DNA from: Lachnospiraceae bacterium
Lineage (GTDB): Bacteria; Bacillota; Clostridia; Lachnospirales; Lachnospiraceae
Assembly: GCA_022798035.1 (NCBI GenBank)
Contig: JAAWLS010000056.1
Span: forward strand, 1-10,235
Length of the DNA stretch: 10,235 nucleotides
Direction: 5' to 3'
Shown here: positions 1,140 through 6,115 of the stretch, piece by piece
Layout: each line of letters begins with the position of its first letter
Position numbering within the stretch: position 1 is the first letter of the stretch
Position numbers and translations under genes: made by a program
Notes under the pieces: generated by a model
What the model was told of the DNA's origin: nothing
Databases searched by the model: none
The model's input: the letters and a program-made list of their open reading frames with translations, nothing else

Positions 1140-2318
1140 ATGCAGGAATTAGAATTAAAATATGGATGCAACCCTAATCAGAAACCTTCCAGAATCTACA
1201 TGGAAGAGGGAGAACTTCCAATTAAAGTGCTGAACGGCAAACCAGGCTATATCAATTTTTTGGACGCTTTTAACGGCTGGCAGCTGGTAAAAGAACTGAA
1301 AAAGGCTGCCGGACTTCCGGCTGCGGCTTCCTTTAAACACGTTTCACCAGCCGGAGCAGCAGTGGGACTTCCATTAACAGAAGTGGAGAAGAAAATTTAC
1401 TGGGTGGACGACATGGATGTGGAGTTTACCCCTTTGGCCAACGCCTATGCAAAAGCCCGGGGTGCAGACCGTATGTCCTCTTTTGGAGATTTTATCGCCC
1501 TGTCAGACGTCTGTGACAAGGCAACGGCGATGATAATCAAGCGCGAGGTGTCCGACGGCGTTATTGCGCCGGGATATGAGCCGGAGGCGCTGGAGATTTT
1601 GAAGGCAAAGAAAAAGGGAAACTATAATGTGATTGAGATTGACCCGGAGTACGAACCAAATCCTCTGGAGCGGAAAGAAGTATTTGGAATTACTTTTGAG
1701 CAGGGAAGAAATGAGCTGAACATTGACAAAGATTTCTTTGGAAATGTGGTGACAGAGCAGAAAGAACTTCCGGAATCTGCCAAGATTGATTTGGCTATTT
1801 CCATGATTACCCTGAAATATACACAGTCAAATTCTGTATGTTATGCAAAAGACGGACAGGCAATCGGAATCGGAGCAGGACAGCAGTCCAGAATCCACTG
1901 TACCCGTCTGGCAGGGCAGAAAGCAGATAACTGGTTTTTAAGACAGGCTCCCGAAGTGCTGAATCTGCAGTTTGTGGATGGAATCGGAAGAGCTGACAGG
2001 GACAACGCCATTGATTTGTATATCGGTGAGGATTACATGGATGTTCTGGCAGACGGTGTCTGGGAAAAGACATTTAAGGTAAAACCAGAAGTATTTACCA
2101 GAGAGAAAAAGAGAAAATGGCTGGATAAGATGACAGGAGTGGCTCTTGGCTCCGACGCATTTTTCCCATTTGGAGATAATATCGAGCGGGCTCACAGAAG
2201 CGGGGTTACTTATGTGGCGGAGCCCGGCGGTTCCATTCGTGACGACCATGTCATCGAAACCTGCAATAAATACCATATGGTACTGTGTTTTACCGGAATC
2301 AGATTATTCCATCATTGA
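1140..2318 (+). CDS. purH: AICAR formyltransferase, stand-alone (PurH C-terminal type)
   Basis: Transfers a formyl group from 10-formyltetrahydrofolate to AICAR to make FAICAR, the penultimate step to IMP. The 392-residue protein corresponds to the transformylase domain of PurH without the cyclohydrolase domain. Landmarks are KYGCNPNQKP at residues 7-16 (substrate-binding start), the Lys-His pair in ASFKHVSPAG (K66, H67, the equivalents of the catalytic pair in PurH), KYTQSNSV at 226-233, GIGAGQQSR at 243-251, and the expected C-terminal end FTGIRLFHH. Both ends are intact, so the gene is complete. The ribosome binding site (AGAGGAG) lies in the 12-bp gap after the cyclohydrolase gene, indicating translational and transcriptional coupling. 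A stand-alone formyltransferase beside a PurO-type cyclohydrolase is the usual clostridial replacement for bifunctional PurH. No terminator separates it from the AraC fusion gene 17 bp downstream. Confidence 0.95.
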   Translation: MQELELKYGCNPNQKPSRIYMEEGELPIKVLNGKPGYINFLDAFNGWQLVKELKKAAGLPAAASFKHVSPAGAAVGLPLTEVEKKIYWVDDMDVEFTPLANAYAKARGADRMSSFGDFIALSDVCDKATAMIIKREVSDGVIAPGYEPEALEILKAKKKGNYNVIEIDPEYEPNPLERKEVFGITFEQGRNELNIDKDFFGNVVTEQKELPESAKIDLAISMITLKYTQSNSVCYAKDGQAIGIGAGQQSRIHCTRLAGQKADNWFLRQAPEVLNLQFVDGIGRADRDNAIDLYIGEDYMDVLADGVWEKTFKVKPEVFTREKKRKWLDKMTGVALGSDAFFPFGDNIERAHRSGVTYVAEPGGSIRDDHVIETCNKYHMVLCFTGIRLFHH

Positions 2319-2335
2319 TGGTCTGAAAAGGATAA

Positions 2336-3550
2336 ATGGAAAGAACGTATATTTTAAAATTATTGCACGCACAAGTGAATATCAATGGACATATCATAGG
2401 AGCAGCGGTGGGCTCTGGAATGACTGGGAAATGTGCAGTTATGGGCGGCGCCGATTTTCTGCTGGCTTTGAGTGCAGGAAAATATCGTATTATGGGGAGA
2501 AGTTCGTATGCCGGTTATTTTTGTTATGGCAATAGCAATGAAATTGTCATGGACATGGGGGTGCACGAGCTTCTTCCCATTATAAGGGATGTTCCGGTGC
2601 TGTTCGGCCTATTTTCCAGCGACCCGGGTATTTATCTCTATGAATATCTGAAAGAGATTAAAGACAATGGATTTTCCGGAATTGTGAATTATCCGACCCT
2701 GGCGTTGGTGGACGGAAAATTCCGGGAAGCCCTGGAGGAAGAGGGAAATTGTTTTGCCAGAGAAGTGGAAGCAATCAAGCTGGCTCATTATCTGGATATG
2801 TTTACAGTGGCTTTTGCCACAAACGAAACAGAGGCGCGGCAGATGTTAGAGGCCGGAGCAGACGTAATCTGCGTACATTTGGGATTGACAAAAGGCGGCT
2901 TTCTGGGAGCAAAAAAATATATTTCCATTGAGGAGGCCAGGAGAATGGCCGGCCGGATTTTTCAAGTCTGCAGGGAAGTCAATGAAAATGCCATACGTAT
3001 GATTTATGCAGGCCCCGTCAACACTCCCATCGACATGCAGTATATGTATAAAAAGACGGACTGCCAGGGATATATCGGAGGCTCCACCTTTGACAGAATT
3101 CCCACAGAGAGGGCAATTTTGAATACTGCCAGAGCCTTCAAAAGCGGCGGAAATTTTGAAAAAGATAATTTGATGAATAAAATTTACAAAGGCGGATGGA
3201 ATCCGAGAGATTACTCAGAATTTGTGAAGCAATATATTGAAGAATACTATATGGACGAAATTCAGCTGGAAAATCTGGCGCTGGTGGCTCATATTTCTCC
3301 TTCCTATCTCAGCTCGAGATTTAAAAAAGAAGTGGGCATAAGTTTTACAGAGTACTTAATCCGACACCGCATTGACAAGGCAAAAGAGCAGCTTCGCGCC
3401 AGCACAGACAGCTGCCGTCAGGTTGCAGAAAATGTGGGATATGTGGATTATGTGCAGTTTTCTAAAATTTTTAAAAAATATGAGGGAATGTCACCCACCG
3501 CTTACCGGGAAAAATTTACTTCAGCTGGAGAAAATTCTCATTTTTCATGA
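2336..3550 (+). CDS. PEP-hydrolase-like TIM barrel fused to AraC-type DNA-binding domain
   Basis: A predicted transcription regulator with an unusual sensor. Residues 1 to about 275 form a TIM barrel of the PEP_hydrolase / TIM-barrel signalling family (PF09370). It aligns without large gaps to the free-standing barrel encoded at 5285-6115: YGNSNEIV / [21 protein letters not shown] / [27 protein letters not shown] / [24 protein letters not shown] / [10 protein letters not shown]. Residues about 293-395 are an AraC/XylS double helix-turn-helix: the first around 309-334 (LENLALVAHISPSYLSSRFK), the second around 357-386 with the family signature VGYVDYVQFSKIFKKYEGMSP. No membrane segment or signal peptide is seen, so it acts in the cytoplasm. 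Sensor positions differ from the enzyme-like paralogue, for example CHGGP became YAGP, which suggests ligand binding without catalysis (inference). The start follows an in-frame TAA at 2333-2335 and has only a weak, close ribosome binding site (AAAAGG at 2326-2331). The gene follows the formyltransferase gene after 17 bp and probably controls the pair downstream. Confidence 0.88.
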   Translation: MERTYILKLLHAQVNINGHIIGAAVGSGMTGKCAVMGGADFLLALSAGKYRIMGRSSYAGYFCYGNSNEIVMDMGVHELLPIIRDVPVLFGLFSSDPGIYLYEYLKEIKDNGFSGIVNYPTLALVDGKFREALEEEGNCFAREVEAIKLAHYLDMFTVAFATNETEARQMLEAGADVICVHLGLTKGGFLGAKKYISIEEARRMAGRIFQVCREVNENAIRMIYAGPVNTPIDMQYMYKKTDCQGYIGGSTFDRIPTERAILNTARAFKSGGNFEKDNLMNKIYKGGWNPRDYSEFVKQYIEEYYMDEIQLENLALVAHISPSYLSSRFKKEVGISFTEYLIRHRIDKAKEQLRASTDSCRQVAENVGYVDYVQFSKIFKKYEGMSPTAYREKFTSAGENSHFS

Positions 3551-3559
3551 GACTAGAAG

Positions 3560-3656
3560 GCTGCTGCAAAATGTGATGGTTTTGCAAGATACGGTTACAG
3601 AAGTCATAACATCTGTACCTTATCCTGCGGAACCTGCTGTTTGTAGCAGCTTTTTT
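3560..3656 (+). terminator. Branched intrinsic terminator after the AraC fusion gene
   Basis: Just after the stop codon, GCTGTT (3636-3641) pairs with AGCAGC (3645-3650, one G-U) and is followed by six T, a simple intrinsic terminator. The same 3' arm can instead pair over 11 bp with GCTGCTGCAAA at 3560-3570 (one G-U pair). That longer stem encloses a bulged hairpin at 3593-3619 (8 bp). A third small stem, GCAAAA with TTTTGC (3566-3571 / 3580-3585), competes with the 5' arm. Termination of the upstream transcript is the simplest role. Confidence 0.6.
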
Positions 3657-3698
3657 ATCATATAGGAAATTCCTTCGGACTTCCTATATGATAAAAAA
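3651..3698. repeat. Perfect 18-bp inverted repeat, bidirectional terminator-like
   Basis: TTTTTTATCATATAGGAA (3651-3668) is perfectly matched by its reverse complement at 3681-3698, with a 12-nt loop containing CCTTCGG. One arm begins with T-rich sequence and the other ends with A-rich sequence. This gives a terminator-like signal for the opposite strand and shares its T-run with the preceding terminator. Its perfection suggests selection, or a recent insertion of a small dispersed repeat. Confidence 0.65.
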
Positions 3699-3710
3699 CA
3701 AATATGCACA

Positions 3711-3753
3711 CGCAAATGCAGAAGAAGTATGTCGCTGACGCGACGCATTTGCG
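3711..3753. repeat. Nested inverted repeats, GC-rich
   Basis: CGCAAATGC (3711-3719) pairs with GCATTTGCG (3745-3753). Immediately inside the 3' side is a second perfect hairpin, GTCGC-TGAC-GCGAC (3731-3744). The local GC is well above the surrounding AT-rich DNA. There is no T-run directly after it, so it is not itself a terminator. It looks like part of a composite hairpin element with its neighbours. Confidence 0.55.
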
Positions 3754-3757
3754 GCGC

Positions 3758-3785
3758 AGAATTTCGTTTTACGAAATTCTTTTTT
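3758..3785 (+). terminator. Rho-independent terminator
   Basis: AGAATTTCG (3758-3766) and CGAAATTCT (3772-3780) form a perfect 9-bp stem with a TTTTA loop, followed by five more T. CAGAATTT (3757-3764) can alternatively pair with AAATTCTG (3787-3794). It is the third terminator-like structure in a row after the AraC fusion gene. Read-through into the Tm-1-like gene should therefore be low, and that gene needs its own promoter. Confidence 0.65.
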
Positions 3786-3821
3786 AAATTCTGTGACGGG
3801 TGCTTTATATGTGTTAATCCA

Positions 3822-3875
3822 ATATAAACACAAGTAAAATTGATAATAGTACAAATATAATTATATAAACACAAG
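3822..3875. repeat. 13-bp direct repeat, candidate AraC-type operator
   Basis: ATATAAACACAAG occurs exactly at 3822-3834 and 3863-3875. The copies start 41 bp apart, about four helical turns, so they face the same side of the DNA. AraC-family regulators typically bind direct repeats, and an AraC-type protein is encoded just upstream. The second copy overlaps the candidate -10 element, so binding there could repress as well as activate. The repeat is certain; the operator role is inference. Confidence 0.45.
3840..3869 (+). promoter_or_regulatory. Candidate promoter for the Tm-1-like / TIM-barrel pair
   Basis: TTGATA (3840-3845) is followed at 16-18 bp by TATATA (3862-3867) or TATAAA (3864-3869). 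A perfect TATAAT also lies at 3856-3861 but lacks a -35 at the right distance. The AT-richness makes chance matches likely. A promoter is needed somewhere here because terminators lie upstream. Transcription from it would leave a leader of about 155 nt. Confidence 0.4.
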
Positions 3876-3931
3876 AAGAAAGAATATAAAGACATTTTAA
3901 AAGGAATCAAAAAGTAGTAGTATTTTCTCAA

Positions 3932-3952
3932 GTGATATTGGCCAATTGTCAC
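3932..3952. promoter_or_regulatory. Dyad symmetry, candidate operator
   Basis: The 10-bp perfect palindrome ATTGGCCAAT (3937-3946) is embedded in a larger imperfect dyad that begins GTGA (3932-3935) and ends TCAC (3949-3952). The outer half-sites resemble CRP/FNR-type arms (GTGA...TCAC), but their centre is offset by half a base from the inner palindrome. It lies between the candidate promoter and the gene start, where a roadblock repressor could bind. The binding protein is unknown. Confidence 0.35.
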
Positions 3953-4031
3953 AGCGTAGAAATCAAATACCCATGCAGGCAGAATCTCTTGGATGACTGC
4001 TCGGGAATATAGAATCAGAAAGGAGAGGTAT

Positions 4032-5249
4032 ATGAGGACAATAGCAGTAGCCGGAACTTTTGATACAAAAGGGCAGGAATTCCTTTATGTTAAGAAATTA
4101 GTGGAAGAATTGGGGCTGCAGCCCTATATGATTCATACAGGTGTGTTTGAGCCGGCTTTTGAACCAGAAGTTACGAATGCGGAAATTGCATCAGCGGCAG
4201 GATACGATATCAACGAGATAGTGGCAAAGAAAGACAGAGCTATGGCAACGGAAGCGCTCTCAAAAGGAATGCAGAATTTGATTCCAAAATTATACCAGCA
4301 GGGAAAATTTGACGGTATTATTTCTTTTGGAGGTTCTGGGGGAACCTCTCTGGTAACGCCGGCAATGCGGGAACTTCCCATTGGTGTTCCCAAAGTTATG
4401 GTATCTACCATGGCGTCAGGAAATGTGTCCCAGTATGTGGGAACAAGTGATATTATCATGATGCCGTCTATTGTAGACGTGGCAGGATTGAATAAGATTT
4501 CAAAAACAATATTTAAGAATGCTGTTCTGGCAATTGCCGGAATGGTGGAGATGGCAGGGAAACTAAAAGAAGATACAAAAGAGACGAAACCTTTGGTGGC
4601 AGCTACGATGTTTGGCGTGACAACACCTTGTGTGGACCAGGCAAAGGCATATCTGGAAGAGCGGGGCTATGAAGTTCTGGTATTCCATGCTACAGGAACC
4701 GGCGGAAAGACCATGGAGTCTTTGATTAACGAAGGATTTTTTGAAGGCGTCTTGGATTTGACTACAACGGAATGGTGTGATGAGATTGTAGGAGGCGTGC
4801 TGGCGGCAGGACCTTACAGATGTGAAGCAGCGGTTAAGAACAAAGTACCTCAGGTGGTTTCAGTAGGAGCCTGCGACATGGTTAATTTCGGACCTATTGA
4901 CACAGTACCGGAACAATTTGCAGAGCGCAATCTCTACAAACACAACCCAACGGTTACCTTGATGCGCACCACAGAAGCAGAGAATGCAGAGATTGGAAAG
5001 AGATTATCTGAAAAATGGAATCAGGCTGAGACAGACATGGTATTGCTGCTTCCCGCAAAGGGCGTTTCCATGATTGACGCAGCAGGACAGCCCTTTGACG
5101 GCCCAGCGGAACGGGACAGTCTCTTTGGAGCTCTGAAACAGGGAATTACCAACAAGAACGTGACAATATTAGAGCTTGACAATCATATCAATGACAAAGA
5201 ATTTGCAGAGACAGCAGCACAGAAATTGATTGATTTGATGAAAAAATAA
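4032..5249 (+). CDS. Tm-1-like ATP-binding protein (UPF0261 family)
   Basis: A 405-residue cytosolic protein of the UPF0261 / Tm-1-like ATP-binding family. This family matches the N-terminal half of the tomato antiviral protein Tm-1; the biochemical role of the bacterial members is not known to me. Family landmarks are GTFDTK near the N-terminus (residues 8-13), the glycine-rich loop SFGGSGGTSL (98-107), ATGTGGKTME (220-229), TTTEW (244-248), LMRTT (310-314) and LPAKGVSMID (340-349). The glycine loops are where nucleotide binding is expected. The start is ATG 4032, 6 nt after AAAGGAG (4019-4025); an upstream in-frame ATG at 3993 has no ribosome binding site and adds residues outside the family. 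The PEP-hydrolase-type barrel gene follows after 35 bp, so the two are one operon. In plants the same two domains are a single protein, implying that the bacterial products work together. Length is normal and nothing is broken. Confidence 0.93.
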   Translation: MRTIAVAGTFDTKGQEFLYVKKLVEELGLQPYMIHTGVFEPAFEPEVTNAEIASAAGYDINEIVAKKDRAMATEALSKGMQNLIPKLYQQGKFDGIISFGGSGGTSLVTPAMRELPIGVPKVMVSTMASGNVSQYVGTSDIIMMPSIVDVAGLNKISKTIFKNAVLAIAGMVEMAGKLKEDTKETKPLVAATMFGVTTPCVDQAKAYLEERGYEVLVFHATGTGGKTMESLINEGFFEGVLDLTTTEWCDEIVGGVLAAGPYRCEAAVKNKVPQVVSVGACDMVNFGPIDTVPEQFAERNLYKHNPTVTLMRTTEAENAEIGKRLSEKWNQAETDMVLLLPAKGVSMIDAAGQPFDGPAERDSLFGALKQGITNKNVTILELDNHINDKEFAETAAQKLIDLMKK

Positions 5250-5284
5250 GAAACCATAGTTTAGAAAAATCAGGAGGTTAAATT

Positions 5285-6115
5285 ATGTTAAGAAGCACGA
5301 GACAGGAAATCGTTGATAATTTTAAGAAACAAGTTGCAGAAGGCAAAATTTTGGTTGGTGTAGGCGCTGGAACCGGAATCACCGCAAAATGCAGTGAGGC
5401 TGCCGATGTAGATATGCTGATTATCTATAATTCCGGACGTTTCAGAATGGCAGGACGTGGTTCTCTGTCTGGACTGTTGTCTTATGGCGACGCCAACAAG
5501 ATTGTACAGGAAATGGGACAGGAAGTACTGCCTATCGTTAAGAAAACACCTGTATTGGCCGGCGTATGCGGAACAGACCCTTTCCGGATTATGGACGTAT
5601 TTTTGAAACAGCTGAAAGAACAAGGATTTAACGGTGTACAGAATTTCCCGACCGTAGGATTGATTGATGGAAAATTCCGTGCAAATCTGGAAGAAACCGG
5701 AATGGGATATGGATTGGAAGTTGAGATGATTCGCGAAGCCCACAAGCTGGATATGCTTACTTGTCCTTATGTGTTTGAGCCGGAGCAGGCAAAAGCAATG
5801 GCAGAGGCAGGAGCTGATATTCTGGTAGCTCATATGGGACTTACCACAAAAGGTTCCATCGGTGCGGAGACAGCTTTAACTTTGGATGACTGCTGTGTAA
5901 AGATTCGCGATATTATCGAAGCCGGCCGTTCTGTGAGACCAGACATTATGGTAATCTGCCATGGCGGACCAATTGCAGACCCAGAAGATGCAGCGTATGT
6001 AATCAAGAATGTACCGGAAATTGATGGATTCTTTGGAGCTTCCTCCATCGAGCGTCTTGCTTCTGAGAGAGGAATGACGGCTCAGGCAGCTGCATTTAAA
6101 GCAATCCACAAATAA
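5285..6115 (+). CDS. PEP-hydrolase-family TIM-barrel protein (Tm-1 C-terminal domain type)
   Basis: A 276-residue TIM barrel of the PEP_hydrolase family (PF09370), corresponding to the C-terminal half of plant Tm-1. The family name implies hydrolysis of a phosphoenolpyruvate-like substrate, but the true substrate of this type is not established to my knowledge. Conserved blocks run through the barrel: [11 protein letters not shown] (26-36), the long loop from [10 protein letters not shown] to LSYGDAN (48-71), CGTDP (95-99), [13 protein letters not shown] (120-132), [17 protein letters not shown] (174-190), CHGGPI (225-230) and [10 protein letters not shown] (248-257). These positions suggest phosphate- and carboxylate-binding loops at strand ends. 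A strong AGGAGG (5272-5277) sits 7 nt before ATG 5285. It is the second gene of the operon with the Tm-1-like protein and a close paralogue of the sensor half of the AraC fusion at 2336-3550. No export signal is present. The family call is firm; the reaction is open. Confidence 0.92.

What the first reader, a model, noticed from the sequence alone, without database searches (positions are those of the whole stretch)
2336..6115. A split Tm-1 system with a dedicated regulator built from its own barrel domain
Seen: three consecutive genes encode an AraC regulator whose sensor is a PEP-hydrolase-family TIM barrel, a Tm-1-like/UPF0261 protein, and a free PEP-hydrolase-family barrel. The last two are the two halves of the plant antiviral protein Tm-1. 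The sensor barrel and the free barrel share many long blocks (for example NYPTLALVDGKFR versus [13 protein letters not shown]). Inference: the regulator arose by fusing a copy of the enzyme barrel to an AraC DNA-binding domain, so that it senses the substrate or product of the pair. This would be a self-contained metabolic module in which enzyme and sensor share one fold. Its substrate is unknown to me.
Basis: partly seen in the sequence, partly recalled or inferred. Interest (0 to 1): 0.75.

Follow-up and report, generated by a model that had tools for sequence, protein, structure and literature searches.

The report
Dead-enzyme sensor guarding its metabolic genes
A bacterial gene switch carries a copy of an enzyme barrel that appears to have lost its catalytic residue, sits beside two genes related to the halves of a tomato antiviral protein, and very probably turns them on from its own promoter, which offers a way to find out what those widespread, little-understood genes do.

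Summary
In detail: 2336-3550 encodes a PF09370 barrel fused to AraC, followed by UPF0261 and a free PF09370 barrel.
(1) The set is real: 70 of the 80 best named relatives hold all three genes, as do 21 of 23 sampled genomes with a fusion.
(2) The same sensor barrel is also fused to a sigma-54 AAA+/Fis activator in the same slot. All sensors form one lineage apart from the free barrels: one old fusion plus one output swap, not a copy of the local enzyme.
(3) Sensors keep most pocket residues but have Tyr/Phe where free barrels have a near-invariant His (0 of 238 have His).
(4) Each output has matching DNA before UPF0261: AraC loci a 21-bp-spaced direct repeat abutting a -35, with a -10 at one fixed distance in 52 of 59 loci (window 3863-3923); sigma-54 loci a -24/-12 element in 8 of 8. 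In 20 genomes, 15 of 16 close operator matches precede the pair.
A solved UPF0261 relative binds acetovanillone and is probably the kinase MarK. I propose a kinase plus phosphate-type barrel, with the sensor reading a phosphorylated pathway compound. The ligand is unknown; sugar acids are the best guess.

The parts
2336..3550 (+). Regulator: PF09370 sensor barrel fused to an AraC DNA-binding domain
   Evidence: 1175 related proteins, the 120 listed all PF09370+AraC
2351..3145 (+). Sensor barrel domain (residues 6-270); Tyr224 where free barrels have His
   Evidence: model mean pLDDT 81, Tyr224 the last residue of a predicted strand
3227..3523 (+). AraC-type DNA-binding domain (about residues 298-396)
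3822..3832 (+). Extra upstream half-site ATATAAACACA
   Evidence: exact copy, 41 bp before the next
3863..3873 (+). Operator half-site 1 (ATATAAACACA)
   Evidence: (1 match of the tandem in the window, 0 in 200 shuffles)
3884..3894 (+). Operator half-site 2 (ATATAAAGACA), 21 bp from half-site 1
3895..3900 (+). -35-like hexamer TTTTAA abutting half-site 2 (TTTACT or similar in many relatives)
   Evidence: position inferred from the -10, weak match on its own
3918..3923 (+). -10-like hexamer TAGTAT at offset 55 from operator start
   Evidence: offset 55 has a -10-like hexamer in 52 of 59 dereplicated loci
4032..5249 (+). UPF0261 protein (half of Tm-1), probable small-molecule kinase
5285..6115 (+). 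Free PF09370 barrel, the presumed enzyme, with His226 present

Best explanation
The locus is a three-gene metabolic module with its own one-component switch. UPF0261 phosphorylates a small molecule, the free PF09370 barrel acts on the phosphorylated product, and the regulator is a non-catalytic member of that barrel family fused to an AraC domain. The regulator binds a pathway compound (most likely the phosphorylated intermediate) in its retained pocket, then binds the two half-sites at 3863-3894, touches RNA polymerase at the abutting -35, and activates UPF0261-barrel from the -10 at 3918-3923. Shown: domains, adjacency, one sensor lineage with two exchangeable outputs, loss of the conserved His, and promoter elements matching each output type. 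Inferred: kinase activity of this member, catalysis by the free barrel, ligand identity, and activation rather than repression (activation is the established mode of sigma-54 enhancer-binding proteins and of AraC proteins bound next to a -35; recalled).
For: All three genes in 70 of 80 named loci, 67 of them in the order regulator-UPF0261-barrel on one strand, and in 21 of 23 sampled genomes with a fusion. In 8 of these 23 the regulator slot is taken by barrel + sigma-54 AAA+ (Pfam run on 7 of the 8; Fis HTH in 6 of the 7, the seventh frame stops in the AAA lid). Sensors form one side of a branch, AraC one clade, two changes in total. His: 22 of 22 partner-type and 22 of 25 other free barrels; Tyr 236 and Phe 2 of 238 sensors, while R61, D105, N127, E152, T194 are kept in 238 of 238. 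Operator: 21 bp is the best gap in both parts of the AraC family, scores 325 and 371 against 32-45 shuffled; -10 at offset 55 in 52 of 59; in 20 genomes, 15 of 16 matches with two or fewer mismatches precede the pair. Sigma-54 element in 8 of 8 upstream regions of sigma-54 loci against 3 of 83 in AraC and 1 of 38 in fusion-less loci; RpoN in 8 of 8 such genomes. UPF0261 relative 9mpy solved with acetovanillone; N. aromaticivorans starts acetovanillone catabolism with 'MarK, a single-component kinase' (PMC13101465, passages).
Against: No biochemical data for any member of the set. That 9mpy (Saro_1862) is MarK is my inference; the MarK paper was not held. 9mpy is only 29% identical to this UPF0261. 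16 of 37 sampled UPF0261 pairs with a partner-type barrel have no PF09370 regulator beside them, so the sensor is not obligatory. At the strict threshold only 25 of 96 AraC loci show the tandem before UPF0261, and 13 tandems lie elsewhere in 2.3 Mb of locus sequence (some at other targets); 3 of 20 genomes had no match. The sigma-54 set is 8 loci, four of one family. The conserved His has not been proven catalytic. The window's genome is a 64% complete assembly, so its regulon search is partial.
Confidence: 0.72

Rival explanations
1. Sugar-acid reading of the ligand (compatible with the best explanation): the pathway handles a keto-deoxy sugar acid or similar sugar phosphate, and the sensor reads that phosphate, for example KDG or KDPG or a near relative.
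For: In four Selenomonas ruminantium loci the regulator has no UPF0261 neighbour, and an operator-like array (4-6 mismatches of 22) with -35 TTTACT and -10 TAAAAT at the same spacing lies between it and hexuronate genes: tagaturonate reductase, a galactarate-dehydratase-family gene, glucuronate isomerase, KDPG aldolase in L175/L176; KDPG aldolase, PfkB kinase, mannonate dehydratase, a fructuronate-reductase-like gene in L183; KDPG aldolase, PfkB kinase, KduI, KduD-like, KdgT in L178. What the three arrangements share is KDPG aldolase. A carbohydrate (FGGY) kinase gene follows the barrel in four sigma-54 loci of one family (one profile-tested). The barrel fold resembles phosphate-binding barrels including a KDPGal aldolase.
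Against: Most triads have no recurrent sugar gene beside them. In Selenomonas the free barrel is divergent and the sensor may have changed ligand.
Confidence: 0.45
2. Aromatic reading of the ligand: the pathway handles phenolic or aryl-ketone compounds, taken up by an anion symporter and released from sulfate esters by an arylsulfotransferase.
For: 9mpy holds acetovanillone. A DASS-type symporter cluster (10 loci, 7 different triad loci after removing L068 and same-contig duplicates) and an arylsulfotransferase-family cluster (11 loci) lie near the triad (four symporters and four sulfotransferases profile-tested), and in L161 that operon has its own copy of the operator, -35 and -10.
Against: A minority of triads carry these genes; UPF0261 of other branches sits with RuBisCO-like and sugar genes.
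Confidence: 0.15
3. The sensor is controlled by mixed assembly with the free barrel rather than by a small ligand, so that enzyme level or occupancy is read by protein contact.
For: The two barrels share one fold at 36% identity; the solved relative has six chains in its entry.
Against: Two sensors of G175 stand by very divergent barrels, and for L069 and L185 no barrel was found in the stretch held, so a matched partner is not always beside it. No interface was tested.
Confidence: 0.1
4. The regulator is a trigger enzyme that still catalyses, or it represses rather than activates.
For: Most pocket residues are kept.
Against: The near-invariant His is lost in 238 of 238 sensors; the sigma-54 version points to activation; the half-site abuts the -35.
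Confidence: 0.1

Closest known systems
AraC-family one-component activators that bind two direct half-sites next to -35, such as AraC at araBAD (recalled)
   Same: AraC DNA-binding domain, direct half-sites 21 bp apart, promoter-proximal one abutting -35
   Different: Sensor is a PF09370 TIM barrel, not a cupin-type AraC arm
Enzyme-derived sensor regulators such as MocR/PdxR, SorC/CggR and DeoR (recalled)
   Same: A metabolic-enzyme fold serves as ligand sensor
   Different: Different fold, and one sensor lineage found with two unrelated outputs and matching promoter types
Sigma-54 enhancer-binding activators (NtrC kind)
   Same: The sister form of this sensor is barrel + Sigma54_activat, mostly with Fis HTH
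   Different: The window's protein itself is the AraC form
Tomato Tm-1 (PMC5028733 abstract and passages; 3wrw, 3wry)
   Different: Two separate bacterial genes plus a regulator; no antiviral role implied
9mpy, Saro_1862, Novosphingobium UPF0261 protein; probably the kinase MarK (PDB title; MarK seen only in passages of PMC13101465)
   Different: In passages of PMC13101465 MarK starts acetovanillone catabolism in a pathway much like Hpe/Acv (kinase, carboxylase, phosphatase); no PF09370 barrel is named there
plu1012-1010 of Photorhabdus (PMC2422844, one passage)
   Same: A 'PrK012399-domain' gene (which I take for PRK02399, the NCBIfam name of UPF0261) next to a TIM-br_sig_trns gene there called a putative sigma54-dependent activator
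   Different: Reported there as insect-induced, with no mechanism in the passage seen

Membership tests
PF09370 (PEP_hydrolase) | Profile match over the curated cut-off | tested here: met
   318.6 and 418.2 bits against cut-off 33.8
PF09370 active enzymes | Near-invariant His of the strand-7 motif (2p10 numbering 233) | tested here: not met
   Sensor has Tyr224; 0 of 238 sensors have His. The free barrel of the window has it (His226).
AraC regulators | HTH_18/HTH_AraC domain | tested here: met
   E 7.2e-22
AraC activators with direct half-sites beside -35 | Two direct half-sites, promoter-proximal one at -35, -10 at fixed distance | tested here: met
AraC activators with direct half-sites beside -35 | Binding and activation | not testable with these tools
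   needs DNase footprint and reporter
UPF0261 / Tm-1-like | PF06792 + PF23189 domains and Tm-1 fold | tested here: met
UPF0261 kinases (MarK) | Phosphotransfer to a small molecule | not testable with these tools
   only homology to 9mpy (E 1.3e-58)
Tm-1 protein | Both domains in one chain | tested here: not met
   two separate genes
PEP mutase / phosphonopyruvate hydrolase superfamily | Fold match | tested here: inconclusive
   none among the 50 rows apart from 2p10, whose title says putative; the list is no proof of absence

The most novel reading that the evidence does not exclude
One ancient dead-enzyme sensor has been moved between two unrelated transcription machineries (sigma-54 enhancer binding and AraC/sigma-70) while staying with the same kinase-barrel pair, the promoter type changing with it. 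Its ligand is the phosphorylated compound made by the UPF0261 kinase, so the sensor reports directly the unknown metabolite of the Tm-1 protein halves, in plants too.
Probability: 0.35. Interest if true: 0.78.

Novelty: new variant of a known kind. Interest (0 to 1): 0.63.

Why it matters
UPF0261 and PF09370 are widespread (bacteria here; plants and fungi per PMC5028733 and PMC8963296), but what they do together is not established in anything I found. A dedicated sensor with a defined operator and a fixed -10 turns that into a simple reporter screen for the inducing compound. It is also a clear natural case of one sensor domain exchanged between two kinds of activator with matching promoters, useful for building biosensors and for studying how regulators are rewired.

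Tried and rejected
Rejected: recent origin of the sensor from the local free barrel (trees). Rejected as the general rule: a conserved fourth gene; the neighbour clustering found none at a fixed place for the sensor-linked triad. The four 3-mismatch operator matches away from the locus in 20 genomes are at the level of the reversed-pattern control (3), and none of the four carries a -10 at the fixed place. No operator-like array was found in the 300 bases upstream of the regulator gene in the window, so no sign of autoregulation by the same site. Rfam at gathering thresholds: no match. The nested hairpin seen in relatives is not in the window; two of the six slices folded there (L133, L196) were cut badly and say nothing. 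Literature: searches turned up no functional study of a PF09370-AraC regulator in the library held; most subscription papers are not in it. The protein labels themselves ('predicted TIM-barrel enzyme/AraC-like DNA-binding protein') show that the fusion is known to annotation pipelines.

Caveats on counts: the 80 named loci are the 80 best of 263 confirmed, so they lean towards near relatives; one of the 70 complete ones (L195) has a regulator frame without an AraC match. Some G loci and named loci are the same contig (such as L059/L193, L060/L158, L139/L178), so undereplicated counts hold duplicates. The operator model was trained on 22 loci chosen for having a tandem; the -10 was not used in choosing them. 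One search dropped 14 of 83 loci scoring under 12 and 10 near-identical ones. Nine long-branched B-type barrels and the six UPF0261-less divergent barrels were left out of the second tree. Type A (partner-type) free barrels were defined by a score of 340 or more to the window's barrel. The 173 AraC and 65 sigma-54 sensors are 90%-identity clusters from two searches, 120 of them the nearest to the window. The shuffles keep base composition only. On re-check I changed: the number of sigma-54 fusions profile-tested (7 of 8), the pair count (16 of 37), the symporter count, and raised the sugar-acid reading from 0.40 to 0.45 because searches showed that three different Selenomonas operons behind the operator share KDPG aldolase.
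Full report
Observation. The window is one whole 10,235-base contig (C30) of a 325-contig assembly (G000, 63.6% complete); its two PF09370 genes are the only two matches found in that assembly. The upstream neighbours are purine genes and the downstream ones are S1-type, transglycosylase, dUTPase-like and ABC ATPase genes. The neighbour clustering shows none of these at a fixed place around relatives; the one large cluster is of ABC ATPases at scattered places.

How common is the set? PF09370 was searched in three draws of genomes: 200 of the same family, 392 of the class, 299 of the phylum, the own genome listed in each. Over the cut-off were 10, 18 and 28, that is 54 different genomes. I fetched the surroundings and scored reading frames against the window's proteins. 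23 of these 54 genomes carry a fusion: 15 the AraC form and 8 a form of about 540-620 aa. Pfam on 7 of these 8 finds Sigma54_activat and the AAA lid in all seven and a Fis-type HTH in six; the seventh frame (L073) stops inside the lid. 21 of the 23 have UPF0261 and a partner-type free barrel in the same fetched stretch; the exceptions are G175 and G609. G001 has besides its triad a second AraC fusion (L069) with neither. In G264 the three lie within about 10 kb but not side by side. In reverse, 16 of 37 UPF0261 pairs with a partner-type barrel have no PF09370 regulator beside them, so the pair can live without it. A scan of named genomes gave 263 relatives, the best 80 kept: 70 carry all three genes, 67 of them in the order regulator, UPF0261, barrel on one strand, median gap 147 bases. 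Of the ten others, four end at or near a contig end, L185 has the regulator alone, and five (four Selenomonas, L212) have a divergent barrel and no UPF0261. The set reaches Bacilli, Negativicutes, Actinomycetaceae and Lonepinella (Pasteurellaceae).

Origin of the sensor. In a tree of 121 barrels, AraC sensors form one clade (SH-aLRT 96) and AraC plus sigma-54 sensors together one side of a branch (97), apart from all 53 free barrels in it. A second tree with many more sigma-54 sensors (120 rows: 66 AraC, 37 sigma-54, 17 free) gives the same: one change between sensor and free, AraC one clade (93), two changes in total. The simplest reading is one fusion and one exchange of the output domain. 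Which output came first is not settled. A protein search limited to the barrel of a sigma-54 fusion listed 120 of 126 hits, 67 sigma-54 and 53 AraC, no third output (only proteins of about 330-1060 aa could appear). These are quick trees without bootstraps.

The promoter. Unsupervised motif search between regulator and UPF0261 found ATATAAACACA copies in 27 loci near the window (width 16, score 205 against 46-53 in shuffles). They come in tandem: of 29 tandems before UPF0261, 26 are spaced 21 bases. At up to two mismatches per half a tandem lies before UPF0261 in 25 of 96 AraC loci and in 0 of 39 fusion-less and 0 of 8 sigma-54 loci; 13 tandems lie elsewhere in 2.3 Mb, some at other likely targets. 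A shared-half-site model with the gap varied peaks at 21 both near the window (325; next best gap 222) and in the rest of the AraC family (313, next 254; 371 with more starts), shuffles 32-45. With the operator as anchor, a -10-like hexamer stands at offset 55 in 21 of 22 loci (at most 7 in 200 shuffles) and in 52 of 59 dereplicated loci of a wider set, 17 bases from a -35-like hexamer that abuts the second half-site. In the window: half-sites 3863-3873 and 3884-3894, -35 3895-3900, -10 3918-3923. In 20 whole genomes the tandem pattern with up to 3 mismatches occurs 24 times in 17 genomes; of the 16 with two or fewer mismatches 15 precede the pair, and the last (L161:4353) precedes a symporter-arylsulfotransferase operon with the same -35 and -10. 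Of the eight with three mismatches, four are at the locus and four elsewhere; the reversed control pattern gives three. In four Selenomonas loci without UPF0261 a weaker array (4-6 mismatches of 22) with -35 and -10 at the same spacing precedes hexuronate genes, of three arrangements that all include KDPG aldolase. So the site follows the target genes.

Sigma-54 loci. A TGGCAY-N5-TTGC-like element (8 or more of 10 positions) lies before UPF0261 in 8 of 8 loci, in 3 of 83 upstream regions of AraC loci and 1 of 38 of loci without fusion; 1.4% of shuffles reach that score. RpoN is found in 8 of 8 of these genomes; of 15 AraC genomes 3 show no match and one (G515) only a weak partial one. Four of the eight are of one family.

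Verdict. The kind of system (enzyme-derived sensor) is known; this sensor, its two outputs and its promoter code appear undescribed in the searches listed.

Noticed in passing
L151, L170, L088, L059 and others, just upstream of UPF0261: The -10 hexamer lies inside the 5' arm of a long hairpin followed by T, as if the promoter were nested in the terminator of the regulator gene. Stems of 12 or more pairs in 25 of 59 loci (0.7% of shuffles), with several pair types per position among 30 loci. Not seen in the window.
   Followed up: partly
L161:4353-4413: Second copy of operator, -35 and -10 before a DASS-type symporter and an arylsulfotransferase-family gene.
   Followed up: partly
L175, L176, L178, L183: Selenomonas variant: divergent barrel overlapping the start of the regulator, no UPF0261, operator-like array before hexuronate/keto-deoxygluconate genes.
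   Followed up: partly
L061, L062 (G175): Fusion regulators next to very divergent PF09370 barrels without UPF0261, among carbohydrate-type genes.
   Followed up: no
L064:6931-14386: Six PF09370 barrels and two UPF0261 genes in one tandem run behind a sugar-type ABC transporter.
   Followed up: no
L136, L137, L140-L143 and others: UPF0261 with one or two barrels beside a RuBisCO-like protein (cluster of 15 loci, one profile-tested); a ComB-like phosphatase cluster of 7 loci overlaps it.
   Followed up: no
window 2318-2336: The regulator starts 17 bases after the stop of an AICAR transformylase gene, so here it may be read with purine genes; no such neighbour recurs in the clustering of relatives.
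   Followed up: no
window 3651-3698: Perfect 18-base inverted repeat with 12-base loop, just after a terminator-like stem at 3634-3650.
   Followed up: no
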